64,000 nt of DNA from Dichomitus squalens LYAD-421 SS1 (lineage: Eukaryota > Basidiomycota > Agaricomycetes > Polyporales > Polyporaceae). Below the pieces are notes generated by a model. That model was given only the letters and a program-made list of their open reading frames with translations. It was not told the DNA's origin and ran no database searches. The stretch covers positions 811,739 through 875,738 of the forward strand of contig NW_006766884.1 in the NCBI RefSeq assembly GCF_000275845.1. Direction: 5' to 3'. Every line of letters starts with the position of its first letter. Within the stretch, counting starts at the first letter, position 1. A program made the translations under genes and the position numbers. Shown piece by piece: positions 22,525 to 28,207 of the stretch.

Positions 22525-22527
22525 ATA

Positions 22528-23222
22528 CTATCGCGACCCCAGTGTTCGGACAGACCCCAGTGTTCGGACAAACGACCGTATCTCCGTCATTGTCCACTCG
22601 ATAAACTTGCAAGTTGGAAGGTAGGTGCCCATATGTGTTCCAAATAAGCAGCAAAAAGAACTGAATTTATATCATAAGCCCTTGGGGCGATCTTGCGGAA
22701 GGGAGTGGTGCAACCCTTCCCTATCAAAGCTTCGGGAGTCTCGCTTCGTATCCCTCTTCGGGCGCTTCCATCCAAATTTCGTGTACGTATTTCTACCTAC
22801 GCATATTACTCACTACCCAATTTTCCGAGGCCTGCTCAGGGGAACACAGAGGAGAAACAAGAAGCAGCCCTCAAGGGCGTGACAATGCAGCCACAGTTTG
22901 ACTCTCCGACTTGCTCGGGATGCTCGGCTAAGGCTCATCAAGCTGGAGAACGGGGATTCCCCGAAGACCGGCAGGTGTCGGCAAGCGTGACAGATCGTGA
23001 CCTGCTGTGCGGAGAATTGTCCGAACACTGGGGTCAGGCCCTGTATATCCTGTCTCCATTGCTCGTATCTCCTTCAATATGTCTTATGTTTGGCACGTAG
23101 TCTATGCATATGCATCTCCTTTTGCATGCCAAAATTGAGCATTATCGGAGTACAGGAAAGTACATAAAACGAAGGGTTTTCGCAGCGGGCGCCTTTTTGT
23201 CCGAACACTGGGGTCGCGATAG
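22528..23222. mobile_element. 695-bp non-autonomous TIR element, Tc1/mariner style
   Basis: Perfect 25-bp terminal inverted repeats (22528-22552 and 23198-23222) begin CTATCGCGACCCC and are flanked on both sides by the dinucleotide TA, as in a TA target-site duplication. The inner 18 bp of the left repeat (GACCCCAGTGTTCGGACA) is repeated directly at 22553-22570 and again, inverted, at 23018-23035. There is no transposase frame inside, so this is a MITE-like element that would need a transposase from elsewhere. TA duplication with short TIRs points to the Tc1/mariner/pogo superfamily. Confidence 0.8.
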
Positions 23223-24139
23223 TAAGACTCAGCGATTTGTGGTTCTCCAATTCATCTCTCGACTCCATATTCATCGACTTGCATCGCTCGTAGGTGAGGC
23301 CGCTGTCGCCCCCTTCTAGGTATCCGATCTGCCATTGCAATACATGGTATGCCGCTTGATTCGTGTGCGTCAAGCAATACCAATACTGAGGGGTTCTTCT
23401 AGACCTACAAACGGACATCATACGTTTCCTGCTGGCCTAATGCAGCACTGTAGATGCTTACGGAACTCGATATCCTAGGCTGAGATGTTGAATGTCATGT
23501 CATTGCACAGGCGGCGTCGTGTGCGCCGCGGAACGCCGGCTCTGGTTTCCCAGCATCCTTCCGCCGGAAGACGGCTGTCCGGCATGCAGTGTTCTTACCG
23601 GGGCATTTTTGCATTGCAGCATATCATGATCAGCTGTGCATCCGTGTTCCGCATGTTAGGCCGTGTGATGGTTGACGAGCAACTGCGACTGAGAAGTGAT
23701 GCACATCCTTGACAGCTGCCCGACGTGATGGTAAGTCAAAATAGCATCCCTGAGAACTGATAGCTATACTTACATCACGAATAGCGTGTCACTGTGGCGA
23801 ATAGGGCAAAGCCCGAGTCCCTGGACACAGTGCACGATTAGCAGTCTACGGGCGCGTTACAAAGGAGGACCGCTCAATCTAGTAACTCAGAAGCGCGAGC
23901 GGGTCGGACCAGATATAGGCGTTTGCCTTGTGAAACGTTATGTTCGAAGTGCGAATGATGTGTCCATGTAAATGGCGCGGACATATTACCGCTGGCTTGG
24001 GAATCTGACAGCGCATTGTTCAGGAACTTCTCGACAGAGCCCACGCCGGCGCTGCCTAGCAGCACTTATACTCGCGCCCTCCCGCAAATCGCACCTTGTT
24101 GGCCTTGATGGTCGGCCCTCGTTCTAATTCTCACCAAAC

Positions 24140-25763
24140 ATGGATTCGACCATCGGTGCCGACTCCCAGGAGGAGCTGCAGGACTTAATGAGCTACCTTG
24201 TTGCCACGTGAGGTAGCGCTGCCTGTCGATGGGAACTCAAAGTGTTAACGACTATCACCACCTTGCAGGGAGATCTTCAACTTTACTGATCTCGCTGTTT
24301 TTGGTAAGAATTCCCGTTGCGTGCTACGCACCCGCGCTGATTTTGCTGCACATACCAGTGGTGATTCTCTATGAATACCTGATAACGGTCGACCGCGAAG
24401 TTCACTTTGCCTGGGGCCGTAAACTCTCATGGGCAAGATGTGTTTTCCTCCTGAACCGGTACCTCACTATCCTGGTCTACCTGGTTGTCTTGGGTCCGCT
24501 GTTGCCTACCGTCAATACTTTTGTGAGTGGTCTTCAAGGTTACAATTGAAGAACTCGTTAACGTACTTCTACAGAGGTAAGCATTGATCACTGCCCGGTT
24601 TGTCGCAAGGGTAAGATGTCTTTCGCAGCTGCGTATTTTTGACCAGGATGATGCAAGCACTTCAAGTCACTCTCTATATCGTGTGGGCCGGTGCGTCAGT
24701 CCCTTTTTTGAGACGGAAAGCTGCACTATCTGAACTATGAGTAGCCTTCGCCGGAATCCGTATATATGCGATCAGTGCGCGCAATCGGGTCGTATCGGTC
24801 ATTGTCGTTGCACTCGCTCTGGTACCTGCGGTCACCAATGCGGTATGAGCCCCATAATATTTGACTTAAGATATGCTAACGAGAGACGTCGTCTTCAGTA
24901 CGTTTCCACTCTGACACCGGTCGCCGTCACTCCTCAAGGCTGCATGGGCTCAATGAACTTGTCGATCATAACATGGACTACGTAGGTTGACTTGTCCTAT
25001 CGTGCATTGCTTTGACTCATTCTGTTTCTTGCAGGCGTAGGTTTTCACGTCTCTTATCACCCTTCGTCCACTCAAGAGAGGCGCATGGTAGTGTCTGTGG
25101 TTACCAGGTCTTGCATGATCTTGTCGGATGCCATTGTGATTATAGTGACTTGGATCAAGACTTGGAGCACCATTCGTGCCGCAGAGAGGCTCAACGTGAA
25201 GATGTCCTTCACAAACCTGGTTCTGAAAGAAGGCATGCTTTACTTCAGGTAAGCTTGGTTGAGGGTATGTGTCGCGCACCTCAAGATCCTAAAACGGGAC
25301 TCGTTAGCATCGCGTTGTCCCTCAATATCGTGCAGATCATCTTCGACTTTGTGGAGGTCGATGACTTTTCGCTGATACTTCCCTTCCTCAATATGTGAGT
25401 TGGGAACTTTACCCCTCCCAAACTTGCATGCTCATGACAATGGCAGGTTCACACCCATTCTCATCTCGCGCTTCTTCCTGGACCTTGATGATCTTGTGAC
25501 CACACATGACCCGCAGTCGCCTTGGACTACTTTGACAGGGACGGGTCGGCAGGCGATCGAGTCCACTATCCGTTTTGCGGATCTCAGCAGGGCGGTACGC
25601 ACTCTGCTGCCTACCTTCTCTCAGGATCTTCGCTGACTTCGCGTAGACTTCGAGCTACCCGCAATCTGCTGCACATATCACTGGATTCCACAGCGAGGGT
25701 GGCATTGAGGATATTGACTCTCTGTTTACAGAGAAGGGATACCGACCGTCGGAGACCTGGTAG
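24140..25763 (+). CDS. DUF6533-family multi-pass membrane protein, paralog 1
   Basis: Exons: 24140-24207, 24269-24303, 24359-24522, 24575-24576, 24629-24690, 24745-24842, 24899-24981, 25035-25036, 25077-25248, 25308-25394, 25447-25594, 25647-25763; 1038 nt, 345 aa. The family signature is LYEYLITVDREVHFAW followed by LLNRYL; about seven hydrophobic segments follow, including MQALQVTLYIVWAAFAGIRI and LS-DAIVIIVTWIKTW. DUF6533 proteins are expanded in mushroom-forming fungi and have no known function. Two exons are only 2 nt long (AG at 24575, GC at 25035); both are required to keep the conserved frame. The second is less certain because its downstream intron would be only 40 nt. The terminal exon (ITGFHSEGGIEDIDSLF) follows a 52-nt intron. 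Confidence 0.85.
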
Positions 25764-26564
25764 GTCTCACTCGGCGCTGCGAAGAAGAACCCGGGCACGG
25801 TCATATTGTATAGTATGTCTCCATGATTGATCAAGCGTGTCCGTGTTTCCGTGTCAATTAGATACAGCTTACACGCAGCCCACCGGCGTACTGCATCCGA
25901 TGCCGGTGAGCCTCGGATGCGGTACTCGTGGCTAAGGTTCAACGATCTGACAGGGGTTGTGGCATCCAGTGTGCGAGTGCAGAGTCAGATCTGTCGTCGC
26001 GTCCCCTCTTCGTTGCCTCCTGCCACAGCATCGCTTCGGCGTCCAATCCCGTCTGACGGCGACTGCGGACGCTGGACGACGGCCGCTCATAGGGCGATGT
26101 GGGTGCCGGAATGATCGACAAACAGCAAGTGACGCCGCTTCCCGTCGAACTTTATCACACTCTGTATCACATACGGCAAGTACCGTTGGACGGGGTTCAC
26201 AGTCCATTTATACCGGCAGAAGATGGGTATTGCCTGCCAGCAATGTCGGTGGACCGTGACTGCCGTCTGTCCAACCAACGTTGCTCCTCGCCGACTCCGC
26301 ATATGCACAGGTGTCACAGGTCAAGCTTCATTGCGAAGCTGCGTTGGTGCGAATACGATGCACCGAACTGAGACGAAAGACACGACTGGCGTCCTGAGAA
26401 AATCTCACCACAGTTGTTGTTGTGCAGGCTTCCATTGATACATCGCCCGACCCCTCATGGCGGCGCGCGCGCTCTCGACGGATATATATACCTCCCGCGG
26501 GCGAGGAGCGGTGTATCCCAGTTGGCCTTGATGGCCCGTTCGTTCCTTTGGGTCGCCTTACAAC
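25764..26564. other. Intergenic region between the DUF6533 paralogs
   Basis: 801 bp with only domain-free frames. TATATATA at about 26483-26490 precedes paralog 2. A shared block GTTGGCCTTGATGG lies upstream of both paralogs (about 24098 and 26521), consistent with a tandem duplication that included promoter sequence. Confidence 0.5.
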
Positions 26565-28207
26565 ATGTCGTCTTCCGCTGGTTCTGACAGTCCTGGAGAG
26601 GGTAGTGATCTTATCCTTGAGTACTATCAAGGCGAGTGAGTAACTTCCGTCCTCCAAGACCAAGCTCCTGGCAGCCAATCTCACAATGCTCCCCTTAGCC
26701 AGCTGAGTCGATACACTGCTTTGGCCGGCTTTGGTTTGTTGCCCCTTGCGTTGCTGCTGGCAATACAGTTGCTGACATTCTCGATAGCTATATTATTGTA
26801 TGAATATTTGATCACTTTCGACCGAGAGGTTCGCTATGTCTCGGAACACAAACGAACTTGGGCAATGGCGGTGTTTGTACTCAACCGGTACATCAGCCTC
26901 CTCCAATCTTTGGCGACTCTTCTCTCTACCTTGCTACCTGTGAATACCTTCGTGCGTGATCCTTCTTGCTTCGAGCTCGACTTCGACGCTGACGTATGTC
27001 CCAGAGGTGAGCAGAGACGCACAATACGTCTGAGGTGCTATTAATATCTATCCGTTGGTAGTTGTATATATATGACGCGTACCATAGCCGCATGTCAGAT
27101 CCTACTTTACGTCGTCTGGGCAGGTGAGCAACTCATTCGTTCCTCCACAGAGAGTCTCATGGAAGGAAATCATAGTGTTCTCCGCCTTGAGGGTTTATGC
27201 TTTCAGTGGCAACAATGCTACTGTCGTTGTTGTCGTCGTCGTGCTTTCGTTAGTCCCGGTTGCGACAAACACTGTAAGTTGCTTCAATATGTATTACTGA
27301 ACGACTGGCGTGGCTAATCCATACTAGGCACTGTCTGCCGTCACTTGGATCGAGGTCGACCCCTTATTGCCCTCTTCAAACATCAACTATTGCAGTGAGG
27401 AGTACAACATCACTCCCCAGGTGTTCGCGGAGTAAGCAGTTGCACTGACGTTTAACCCTACAATGCTGAAGCTGATTGCATGGTTTAGCCGTAAGCGCAT
27501 CGCACCCTCGATTACCCCATTCTCAAGCCCTCTGACGTCTGCCTTTCAGTCGGTTTGCTCACGCATGTCCCGCTCCTACTCTCGGAGGCCATCGTGATTA
27601 TAGTGACCTTCGTGCGAACGTGGAACCTGGCGCCAAGGCGTGACAAGTCCTCAATGGTCGAGTTAGCACGGCTGGTTCTGAAGGAAGGAATCCTCTACTT
27701 TCTGTCAGTCCATGGCTGTTTACTCTCGACATTGCTGCATACTGATGGTCTCGCAACGGGCAGGGCCATGCTCTTGATCAACAGCACTCTGATTATTTCA
27801 GACTTCATCCTGGACGCCAACTTTGCGGTCGCTTGTGTTATATTCGGCCTGTTAGTTACATTTGTTGGCTCATGTTGACGTCTGTGCTCACGTTTCTTCA
27901 CTCTACAAGGATGGTTCCTGTACTCGTCTCCCGCTTCTATCTAGACTTGGACCGCATACGCAGGGCCGAAGATGCACGAAAAGCGGAGGAGAAACGTCGG
28001 GCCGATCCGGAGAGAACCAAGTCGTGGAAGATAAAGGTATGGTTAAGCTTATGCGTCCTTGAAACGAATTCTGAGCGGTCGCGCGATAATCTATCGCAGC
28101 CTCTTCCTCCTCTCCCCGAAGACGAGGGCGGTGAGAAGGTCCGCTACGTGGAGGAGGTGTTCCAGTACAACGGGCGATTACGAGGAAAGAACGCCATTCT
28201 GTTATAG
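26565..28207 (+). CDS. DUF6533-family multi-pass membrane protein, paralog 2
   Basis: Exons: 26565-26635, 26699-26733, 26788-26951, 27005-27006, 27062-27123, 27176-27273, 27328-27431, 27489-27490, 27550-27703, 27764-27850, 27910-28036, 28100-28207; 1014 nt, 337 aa. The signature is LLYEYLITFDREVRYV followed by FVLNRYI. Several exon lengths are identical to paralog 1 (35, 164, 2, 62, 98, 2 and 87 nt), which proves common descent. Both 2-nt exons (AG at 27005, CC at 27489) are flanked by good AG/GT sites and introns of 53-59 nt. The cytosolic tail is charged (RRAEDARKAEEKRRADPERT). Function unknown; a membrane sensor or channel-like role would be a guess. Confidence 0.9.

What the first reader, a model, noticed from the sequence alone, without database searches (positions are those of the whole stretch)
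24575..27490. 2-nt micro-exons conserved in two tandem DUF6533 paralogs
Both genes need the same 2-nt exon AG (24575-24576 and 27005-27006) between two introns of 52-55 nt to keep the conserved frame (VNTF / S / C..). A second 2-nt exon lies at an equivalent place (GC at 25035-25036, CC at 27489-27490). All four are bounded by AG..GT. Without them the downstream membrane segments fall out of frame; with them the exon sums are exact (1038 and 1014 nt), and several neighbouring exons have equal length in the two genes. Exons this small are at or below the size thought possible for exon definition, and gene finders would miss them. They may act as recursive splice sites.
Basis: seen in the sequence. 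Interest (0 to 1): 0.78.

Follow-up and report, generated by a model that had tools for sequence, protein, structure and literature searches.

The report
Two-nucleotide exons throughout a gene family
Two neighbouring fungal genes really do contain exons only two letters long, and the same two tiny exons recur at the same two places in most of the 80 other copies examined, so they look like an old, routine part of how these receptor-like genes are spliced.

Summary
All four 2-nt exons are at the stated coordinates between AG and GT, and both genes give full 12-exon reading frames (1023 and 1014 nt). The genome, apparently the polypore Dichomitus squalens, has at least 150 DUF6533 matches. In a spliced alignment of the 80 best-scoring other copies plus these two, trained on copies under 40% identical and with the micro-exon columns blanked, a 2-nt exon appears at site 1 in 70 of 82 and at site 2 in 62 of 82; no exon of 3 nt or less appears elsewhere in these models. 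Shuffled decoys give such exons in 7.6% and 11.2%. Five copies lack one flanking intron and keep the two bases in a neighbouring exon. The 2-nt model of gene 2 is identical to a public D. squalens protein; three public models of gene 1 differ at both sites. Two transcript-like contigs from relatives read through sites where close annotated genes depart. Best explanation: constitutive coding micro-exons, each flanking intron recognised on its own. The recursive-splice idea is not supported. One-nt exons are already published; a family-wide pair is a new variant. Direct RNA reads are missing.

The parts
24140..25763 (+). Gene 1: DUF6533 gene, 12 exons, 1023 nt coding with stop (340 aa)
   Evidence: PF20151 48.8 bits against a cut-off of 24.1; profile models
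24359..24522 (+). Gene 1 exon 3 (164 nt), ends phase 0 at VNTF
   Evidence: same length in gene 2
24523..24574 (+). Gene 1 intron upstream of micro-exon 1 (52 nt, GTGAGT...ACAG)
24575..24576 (+). Gene 1 micro-exon 1: AG, first two bases of the Ser codon before the conserved Cys
24577..24628 (+). Gene 1 intron downstream of micro-exon 1 (52 nt)
24629..24690 (+). Gene 1 exon 5 (62 nt; conserved Cys and start of helix 3)
24982..25034 (+). Gene 1 intron upstream of micro-exon 2 (53 nt)
25035..25036 (+). Gene 1 micro-exon 2: GC (third base of one codon, first base of the next)
25037..25091 (+). Gene 1 intron downstream of micro-exon 2 (55 nt); ends at 25091 rather than 25076
25092..25248 (+). Gene 1 exon 9 (157 nt)
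   Evidence: 157 nt also in L013 and L028
26565..28207 (+). Gene 2: DUF6533 gene, 12 exons, 1014 nt coding with stop (337 aa), 100% identical to public protein P0001
26788..26951 (+). Gene 2 exon 3 (164 nt)
26952..27004 (+). Gene 2 intron upstream of micro-exon 1 (53 nt)
27005..27006 (+). Gene 2 micro-exon 1: AG
27007..27061 (+). Gene 2 intron downstream of micro-exon 1 (55 nt)
27062..27123 (+). Gene 2 exon 5 (62 nt)
27432..27488 (+). Gene 2 intron upstream of micro-exon 2 (57 nt)
27489..27490 (+). Gene 2 micro-exon 2: CC
27491..27549 (+). Gene 2 intron downstream of micro-exon 2 (59 nt)

Best explanation
The four dinucleotides are real, constitutive coding exons of 2 nt. They belong to an exon-intron layout shared by most of the DUF6533 copies examined here: micro-exon 1 supplies the first two bases of the codon before a conserved Cys (phase 0 / 2 nt / phase 2), and micro-exon 2 supplies the last base of one codon and the first of the next (phase 2 / 2 nt / phase 1). 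They are spliced by intron definition: each flanking intron of about 53-58 nt carries its own donor, branch-like site and acceptor and is recognised across itself, so exon length hardly matters. Because the 3' site of the first intron and the 5' site of the second lie 2 nt apart, the two introns are probably removed one after the other. Shown: position, phase, frame and recurrence across the family. Inferred: inclusion in RNA of this species, constitutive inclusion, intron definition, and step-by-step removal.
For: (1) 2-nt exons at site 1 in 70 and at site 2 in 62 of 82 loci, none of 3 nt or less elsewhere in the models, with each locus judged by a profile of models under 40% identical to it and with the micro-exon columns blanked; one search counted 70 and 59. 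(2) Decoys with the interior shuffled, 10 for each locus that has the exon: 53 of 700 and 67 of 600. (3) Spacer spectrum AG-N{k}-GT: k=2 in 44 of 76 loci against 3.7 in shuffles at site 1, and 39 of 74 against 4.4 at site 2. (4) The best model without micro-exons loses a median of 13.6 and 20.0 bits; in gene 1 and gene 2 about 29 and 30 bits at site 1, 20 and 19 at site 2. (5) Copies lacking one flanking intron keep the bases in an adjacent exon: L028, L041, L064, L050 at site 1, L013 and L028 at site 2; the nearest relatives of L041 and L064 have the 2-nt exon. (6) The gene 2 model equals public protein P0001, 337 aa at 100% identity and coverage. (7) Uninterrupted proteins from 1.3-1.8 kb contigs (P0090, P0074) read through site 1, and P0090 also through site 2, where close annotated relatives carry inserts or gaps. 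(8) Flanking introns have ordinary lengths and signals, apart from one weak donor class.
Against: No RNA reads of this species could be examined. P0001 may be a prediction rather than transcript-based. The 82 loci are paralogues, not independent samples, and the alignment program is my own. Site-1 downstream donors are weak inside the intron (mean -0.21 bits against 2.98 elsewhere; +5 G in 41 of 70), which could mean inefficient splicing. For some loci the advantage over a micro-exon-free model is small (minimum 1.8 bits at site 1, 0.6 at site 2). 33 of 700 and 16 of 600 decoys scored at least as high as the real sequence. Twelve of 82 loci at site 1 and 20 of 82 at site 2 do not give a 2-nt exon; at site 2, 9 of these have an 8-nt exon. 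The annotated relatives of P0090 and P0074 depart from them at other places too (P0141, P0143, and three residues in P0080), so annotation error is not confined to the two sites.
Confidence: 0.9

Rival explanations
1. The micro-exons act as recursive splice sites (ratchet points): the first intron is spliced to an AG|GT point that regenerates a donor, and the bases matter for splicing, not for coding.
For: At site 1 the commonest dinucleotide is AG (40 of 70), which recreates AG|GT; donors after a micro-exon ending in G are weaker inside the intron (-1.11 against 2.40 bits, Mann-Whitney p 2.6e-4, paralogues not independent), so the two letters seem to act as the exonic half of the donor. Zero-length spacers are somewhat frequent at site 2 (8 of 74 against 2.8).
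Against: Zero-length AG|GT is rarer than in shuffles at site 1 (1 of 76 against 3.1). At site 2 only 8 of 60 micro-exons end in G. The letters vary and the frame needs 2 nt.
Confidence: 0.05
2. Annotation artefact: each site holds one intron of about 110 nt, or other donor/acceptor pairs, and the 2-nt exon is a chance AGNNGT that happens to mend the frame.
For: Some loci can be modelled with one intron of 87-109 nt at little cost; three public models of gene 1 differ at both sites, one of them through other pairs. At site 2 spacings k=0, 6, 8, 9 and 13 also exceed shuffles.
Against: k=2 stands 12-fold (site 1) and 9-fold (site 2) above shuffles; at site 1 no other spacing exceeds 7 of 76. At site 2 k=6 is probably the second GT of GTNNGT donors and k=8 the 8-nt exons. 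Introns of 80 nt or more are rare at other positions (median 58, 95th percentile 76). The reference-strain model of gene 1 needs a 29-nt intron and drops a 62-nt exon.
Confidence: 0.04
3. Stwintron: the 100-129-nt unit is a pair of nested introns removed entirely, leaving no exon.
For: Two adjacent canonical introns within one span, a known fungal arrangement (PMC12403724, start of abstract in the listing).
Against: Removal without the two bases ends in premature stops in both genes. The [D1,2] type needs G before the inner GT and T after the inner AG; in the four window sites the base before the first GT is T, C, C or A and the base after the inner AG is A, G, A or C.
Confidence: 0.02
4. The micro-exons are real but regulated: inclusion or skipping switches the receptor-like proteins on or off.
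For: Skipping gives premature stops in both genes; the weak site-1 downstream donors could be tuned; a regulated micro-exon is reported in Trichoderma (PMC11121469, start of abstract in the listings).
Against: No expression data; donors after micro-exon 2 are near ordinary (2.33 against 2.98 bits).
Confidence: 0.12

Closest known systems
1-nt exon of CYP621A in Fusarium (PMC12940212; parts 1 and 2 of 3 read)
   Same: Ultra-small fungal coding exon between two canonical introns, needed for the frame, usually wrong in public models; an intronless relative shows the missing base in place
   Different: One site with a 1-nt exon in 20-24 genes of one P450 subfamily, supported by SRA reads; here two 2-nt sites per gene across most examined copies of a large family in a basidiomycete, without reads
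1-nt exons of plant APC11 and VPS55 (PMC4674806 part 1 of 3 read; PMC8831610 passages)
   Same: Conserved ultra-small exon, often misannotated; APC11 copies without introns carry the base inside a larger exon
   Different: One such exon per gene in small families; APC11 was shown experimentally with reporter constructs
Micro-exons of Phanerochaete P450 genes (PMC1184071, passages)
   Same: White-rot basidiomycete, many very small exons and 45-55-bp introns across a gene family
   Different: The shortest exon reported there is 6 bp
Stwintrons (PMC12403724 start of abstract; PMC5639578 passages)
   Same: Two adjacent fungal introns that must be removed in sequence
   Different: Stwintrons leave no exon between them; here two coding bases remain
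SNB1 (Snowball) of Coprinopsis cinerea, a DUF6533 seven-helix protein (PMC10949477, passages)
   Same: Same Pfam domain, seven predicted helices
   Different: No micro-exon appears in the passages seen

Membership tests
Ultra-small constitutive micro-exon (APC11/CYP621A kind) | Exon of 1-3 nt flanked by canonical GT-AG introns of normal size | tested here: met
Ultra-small constitutive micro-exon (APC11/CYP621A kind) | Omission breaks the reading frame | tested here: met
   premature stops in both genes
Ultra-small constitutive micro-exon (APC11/CYP621A kind) | Relatives without the flanking introns carry the bases in a larger exon | tested here: met
   L028, L041, L064, L050 (site 1), L013, L028 (site 2); in each only one of the two introns is missing
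Ultra-small constitutive micro-exon (APC11/CYP621A kind) | Spliced reads of the same gene contain the bases, in all conditions | not testable with these tools
   No reads available; indirect support only from contig-encoded proteins of relatives
Recursive splice site | Zero-length AG|GT point that regenerates a donor | tested here: not met
   Window sites have 2 nt between AG and GT; k=0 in 1 of 76 at site 1 and 8 of 74 at site 2
Stwintron | Whole unit removed, inner intron interrupts a splice element of the outer one | tested here: not met
   Frame requires 2 nt; [D1,2] bases absent in the four window sites; other stwintron types not examined
PF20151 (DUF6533) | Score above Pfam's cut-off | tested here: met
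   48.8 and 48.6 bits against 24.1
GPCR (fold) | Seven-helix GPCR fold | tested here: met
GPCR (function) | Ligand binding and G-protein coupling | not testable with these tools
   Fold only; no sequence match among solved structures up to E 1

The most novel reading that the evidence does not exclude
Since most examined copies of a family with at least 150 GPCR-like genes need two 2-nt exons, and skipping one causes premature stops in the two genes tested, one shared splicing condition could gate the whole receptor repertoire of a mushroom-forming fungus: micro-exon inclusion as a family-wide on/off switch. The weak donor after micro-exon 1 would be the tuned step.
Probability: 0.12. Interest if true: 0.87.

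Novelty: new variant of a known kind. Interest (0 to 1): 0.68.

Why it matters
Published 1-nt exons are few and scattered. Here 132 exons of 2 nt are inferred in 82 genes of one genome (70 + 62), at two fixed places in a divergent family (median pairwise identity 27% among 79 models). If RNA confirms it, this spliceosome handles 2-nt exons routinely, which gives a natural series of paired sites, letters and intron-lacking copies for testing intron definition and the lower size limit of exons. It also means that many public models of DUF6533 proteins, which have a GPCR-like predicted fold, are probably wrong where the conserved helix-3 Cys is encoded.

Tried and rejected
Single-intron and other donor/acceptor models: fitted per locus, they lose a median of 13.6 (site 1) and 20.0 (site 2) bits. 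A first run with nine junction columns blanked left 18 of 82 loci without a small exon at site 1; a later run left a similar set. Reading the 18 by eye I saw a 2-nt option in 10, one intron missing in 4, 2 unclear and 2 not covered. A splice model trained on 490 introns from other positions then raised the count to 70. All 82 loci stay in the counts.

Duplication origin: the two introns of a pair are no more alike than introns of different genes (site 1 0.439 against 0.444, site 2 0.460 against 0.449), so no trace of a tandem duplication. The k=6 peak at site 2 (21 of 74) I explain by the second GT in GTNNGT donors, and k=8 by the 8-nt exons; neither was tested separately, and k=9 and k=13 remain unexplained.

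Three loci (L025, L045, L047) look intronless or odd at site 2 in the model, but an acceptor-like CAG lies at the expected place in L025 and L045 (by eye); I left them unresolved and did not count them as intron-lacking copies.

The remaining DUF6533 matches (68 of 148 outside the window) were not examined. Papers: DUF6533 appears in 2 held papers; the passages read in them do not mention micro-exons. Searches for 2-nt exons and for micro-exons in fungi listed no paper on micro-exons in this family; the library lacks most subscription journals.
Full report
What is there. The four dinucleotides are at the stated places, each between AG and GT. Joining exons gives two complete 12-exon genes: gene 1 at 24140-25763 (68, 35, 164, 2, 62, 98, 83, 2, 157, 87, 148, 117 nt; 1023 nt) and gene 2 at 26565-28207 (71, 35, 164, 2, 62, 98, 104, 2, 154, 87, 127, 108 nt; 1014 nt). 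Both proteins match DUF6533 (PF20151; 48.8 and 48.6 bits, cut-off 24.1). The 337-residue gene 2 model is 100% identical to a public D. squalens protein, P0001, so an annotation pipeline had reached the same protein. Public models of gene 1 from three D. squalens strains (P0030, P0031, P0032) differ from it at both sites. The first 130 residues of P0032 are reproduced by a 29-nt intron 24523-24551, a 25-nt exon and loss of the 62-nt exon; introns elsewhere in the family have a 1st percentile of 45 nt. The genome is probably D. squalens LYAD-421 SS1: contig C3 (2008877 bases) has the length given for the contig of P0002. This is an inference; C2 (2223129) and the contig of P0032 (2227603) do not have equal lengths.

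A family-wide feature. The genome has at least 150 DUF6533 matches (150 of 204 candidates scored, all 150 over the cut-off). I fetched the 80 best-scoring ones outside the window, 80 of 148. They give 80 non-overlapping models on 36 contigs. I wrote a spliced-alignment program and retrained its splice model on 490 introns from other positions. In the strictest run each locus was aligned to a profile of models under 40% identical to it, with the micro-exon columns blanked: a 2-nt exon at site 1 in 70 of 82, at site 2 in 62 of 82, both in 55 of 82, an 8-nt exon at site 2 in 9 of 82, and no exon of 3 nt or less elsewhere in the models. One search counted 70, 59 and 54 for both. Median pairwise identity is 27% among the 79 models scoring over 150.

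Chance. Shuffling the interior between the outer splice sites and rerunning the program, 10 times for each locus with the exon, gave an exon of 3 nt or less at the site in 53 of 700 decoys (site 1) and 67 of 600 (site 2); 33 of 700 and 16 of 600 decoys scored at least as high as the real sequence. Counting AG-N{k}-GT with a donor-like filter between anchor codons, k=2 occurs in 44 of 76 loci at site 1 (3.7 in shuffles) and 39 of 74 at site 2 (4.4); at site 1 the other spacings run from 1 to 7. At site 2 k=6 (21), k=9 (11), k=13 (9), k=0 (8) and k=8 (8) are also above their shuffles (2.8 to 4.4); k=6 is probably the second GT of a GTNNGT donor and k=8 the 8-nt exons. Banning micro-exons costs a median of 13.6 bits at site 1 and 20.0 at site 2, with minima of 1.8 and 0.6.

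Natural controls. In L028 and L064 one 59-nt intron fills site 1 and the codon before the Cys is whole in the downstream exon (GCG TGT; AGA TGT). In L041 (47 nt) and L050 (55 nt) the two bases are fused to the upstream exon. At site 2, L013 and L028 have one intron. The nearest relatives of L041 and L064 (43% and 48% identical) have the 2-nt exon, which suggests intron loss.

Transcript-like evidence. A profile search returned 102 proteins. Sixteen carry only the source tags lgn or jgi, on contigs of 1.0-1.8 kb; the tool does not define the tags. Since the 79 better D. squalens models all have 7 or more introns, I take such uninterrupted proteins as transcript-derived; this is an inference. 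P0090 (1315-base contig) is 91.7% identical over 314 columns to a Suillus protein, P0116, which has a 19-residue insert at site 1 and agrees at site 2. Two further Suillus models, P0141 and P0143, depart from P0090 at both sites, and also elsewhere. P0074 (1770-base contig) is 92.5% identical over 333 columns to P0080 of Fomes fomentarius, which departs at site 1 and also lacks three residues further on. In a pattern count, 45 of 120 non-contig proteins with both anchors (of 137) had a spacing of 46-53 (36 of the 45 with the Cys in place), against 9 of 16 of the contig proteins (all 9 with the Cys); the anchors misfired in some rows of both groups.

Mechanism. The introns before and after micro-exon 1 and before and after micro-exon 2 have median lengths 53, 56, 55 and 58 nt (others 58), pyrimidine-AG acceptors in 85-99%, and a branch-like YTRAY in 47-66% against 26-31% in shuffles (others 53% against 27%). 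They look self-sufficient, which is what intron definition needs. The donor after micro-exon 1 is weak inside the intron (mean -0.21 bits against 2.98 elsewhere), mainly where the micro-exon ends in G (-1.11 in 52 against 2.40 in 18, p 2.6e-4), so exonic and intronic donor strength seem to trade off; no such difference shows at site 2 (2.06 in 8 against 2.37 in 52), and paralogues are not independent, so this p value is only a guide. The two splice sites 2 nt apart cannot easily be occupied together, so removal in sequence is likely (inference from general knowledge of splice-site footprints).

Recursive splicing and stwintrons fail on the need for two retained bases.

Novelty. One-nt exons are published in plants and Fusarium, so the kind is known. 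I found no report of 2-nt exons in this family in the held library. A pair of 2-nt exons kept across most examined copies of a large family is a new variant.

Noticed in passing
window 22526-22552 and 23198-23224: 27-nt perfect inverted repeats about 0.7 kb apart, with further copies of an 18-19-nt core between them; looks like a small non-autonomous DNA transposon 0.9 kb upstream of gene 1.
   Followed up: partly
window 26565-28207 (protein P0001): The predicted DUF6533 structure has a GPCR-like seven-helix fold, closest to class D GPCR Ste2 by VIA-align.
   Followed up: partly
L017, L024, L042, L061, L062, L064, L066, L067, L083: These copies have an 8-nt exon at site 2 in the same phases (2 to 1) as the 2-nt exon elsewhere, so the micro-exon length differs by two codons.
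   Followed up: partly
L061, L062, L067 and others, profile columns 237-241; protein P0074: A 9-nt exon is modelled in a few copies of that same group, and the transcript-like protein P0074 has three residues near there that the annotated P0080 lacks: possibly a third micro-exon.
   Followed up: no
many of L009-L088, profile columns 218-223: Many copies have a further 16-nt exon (218.1 to 223.2) that the two window genes lack as a separate exon.
   Followed up: no
window gene 1, 24523-24576: The public reference-strain model P0032 is reproduced by a 29-nt intron and loss of the 62-nt exon that carries the conserved Cys.
   Followed up: yes
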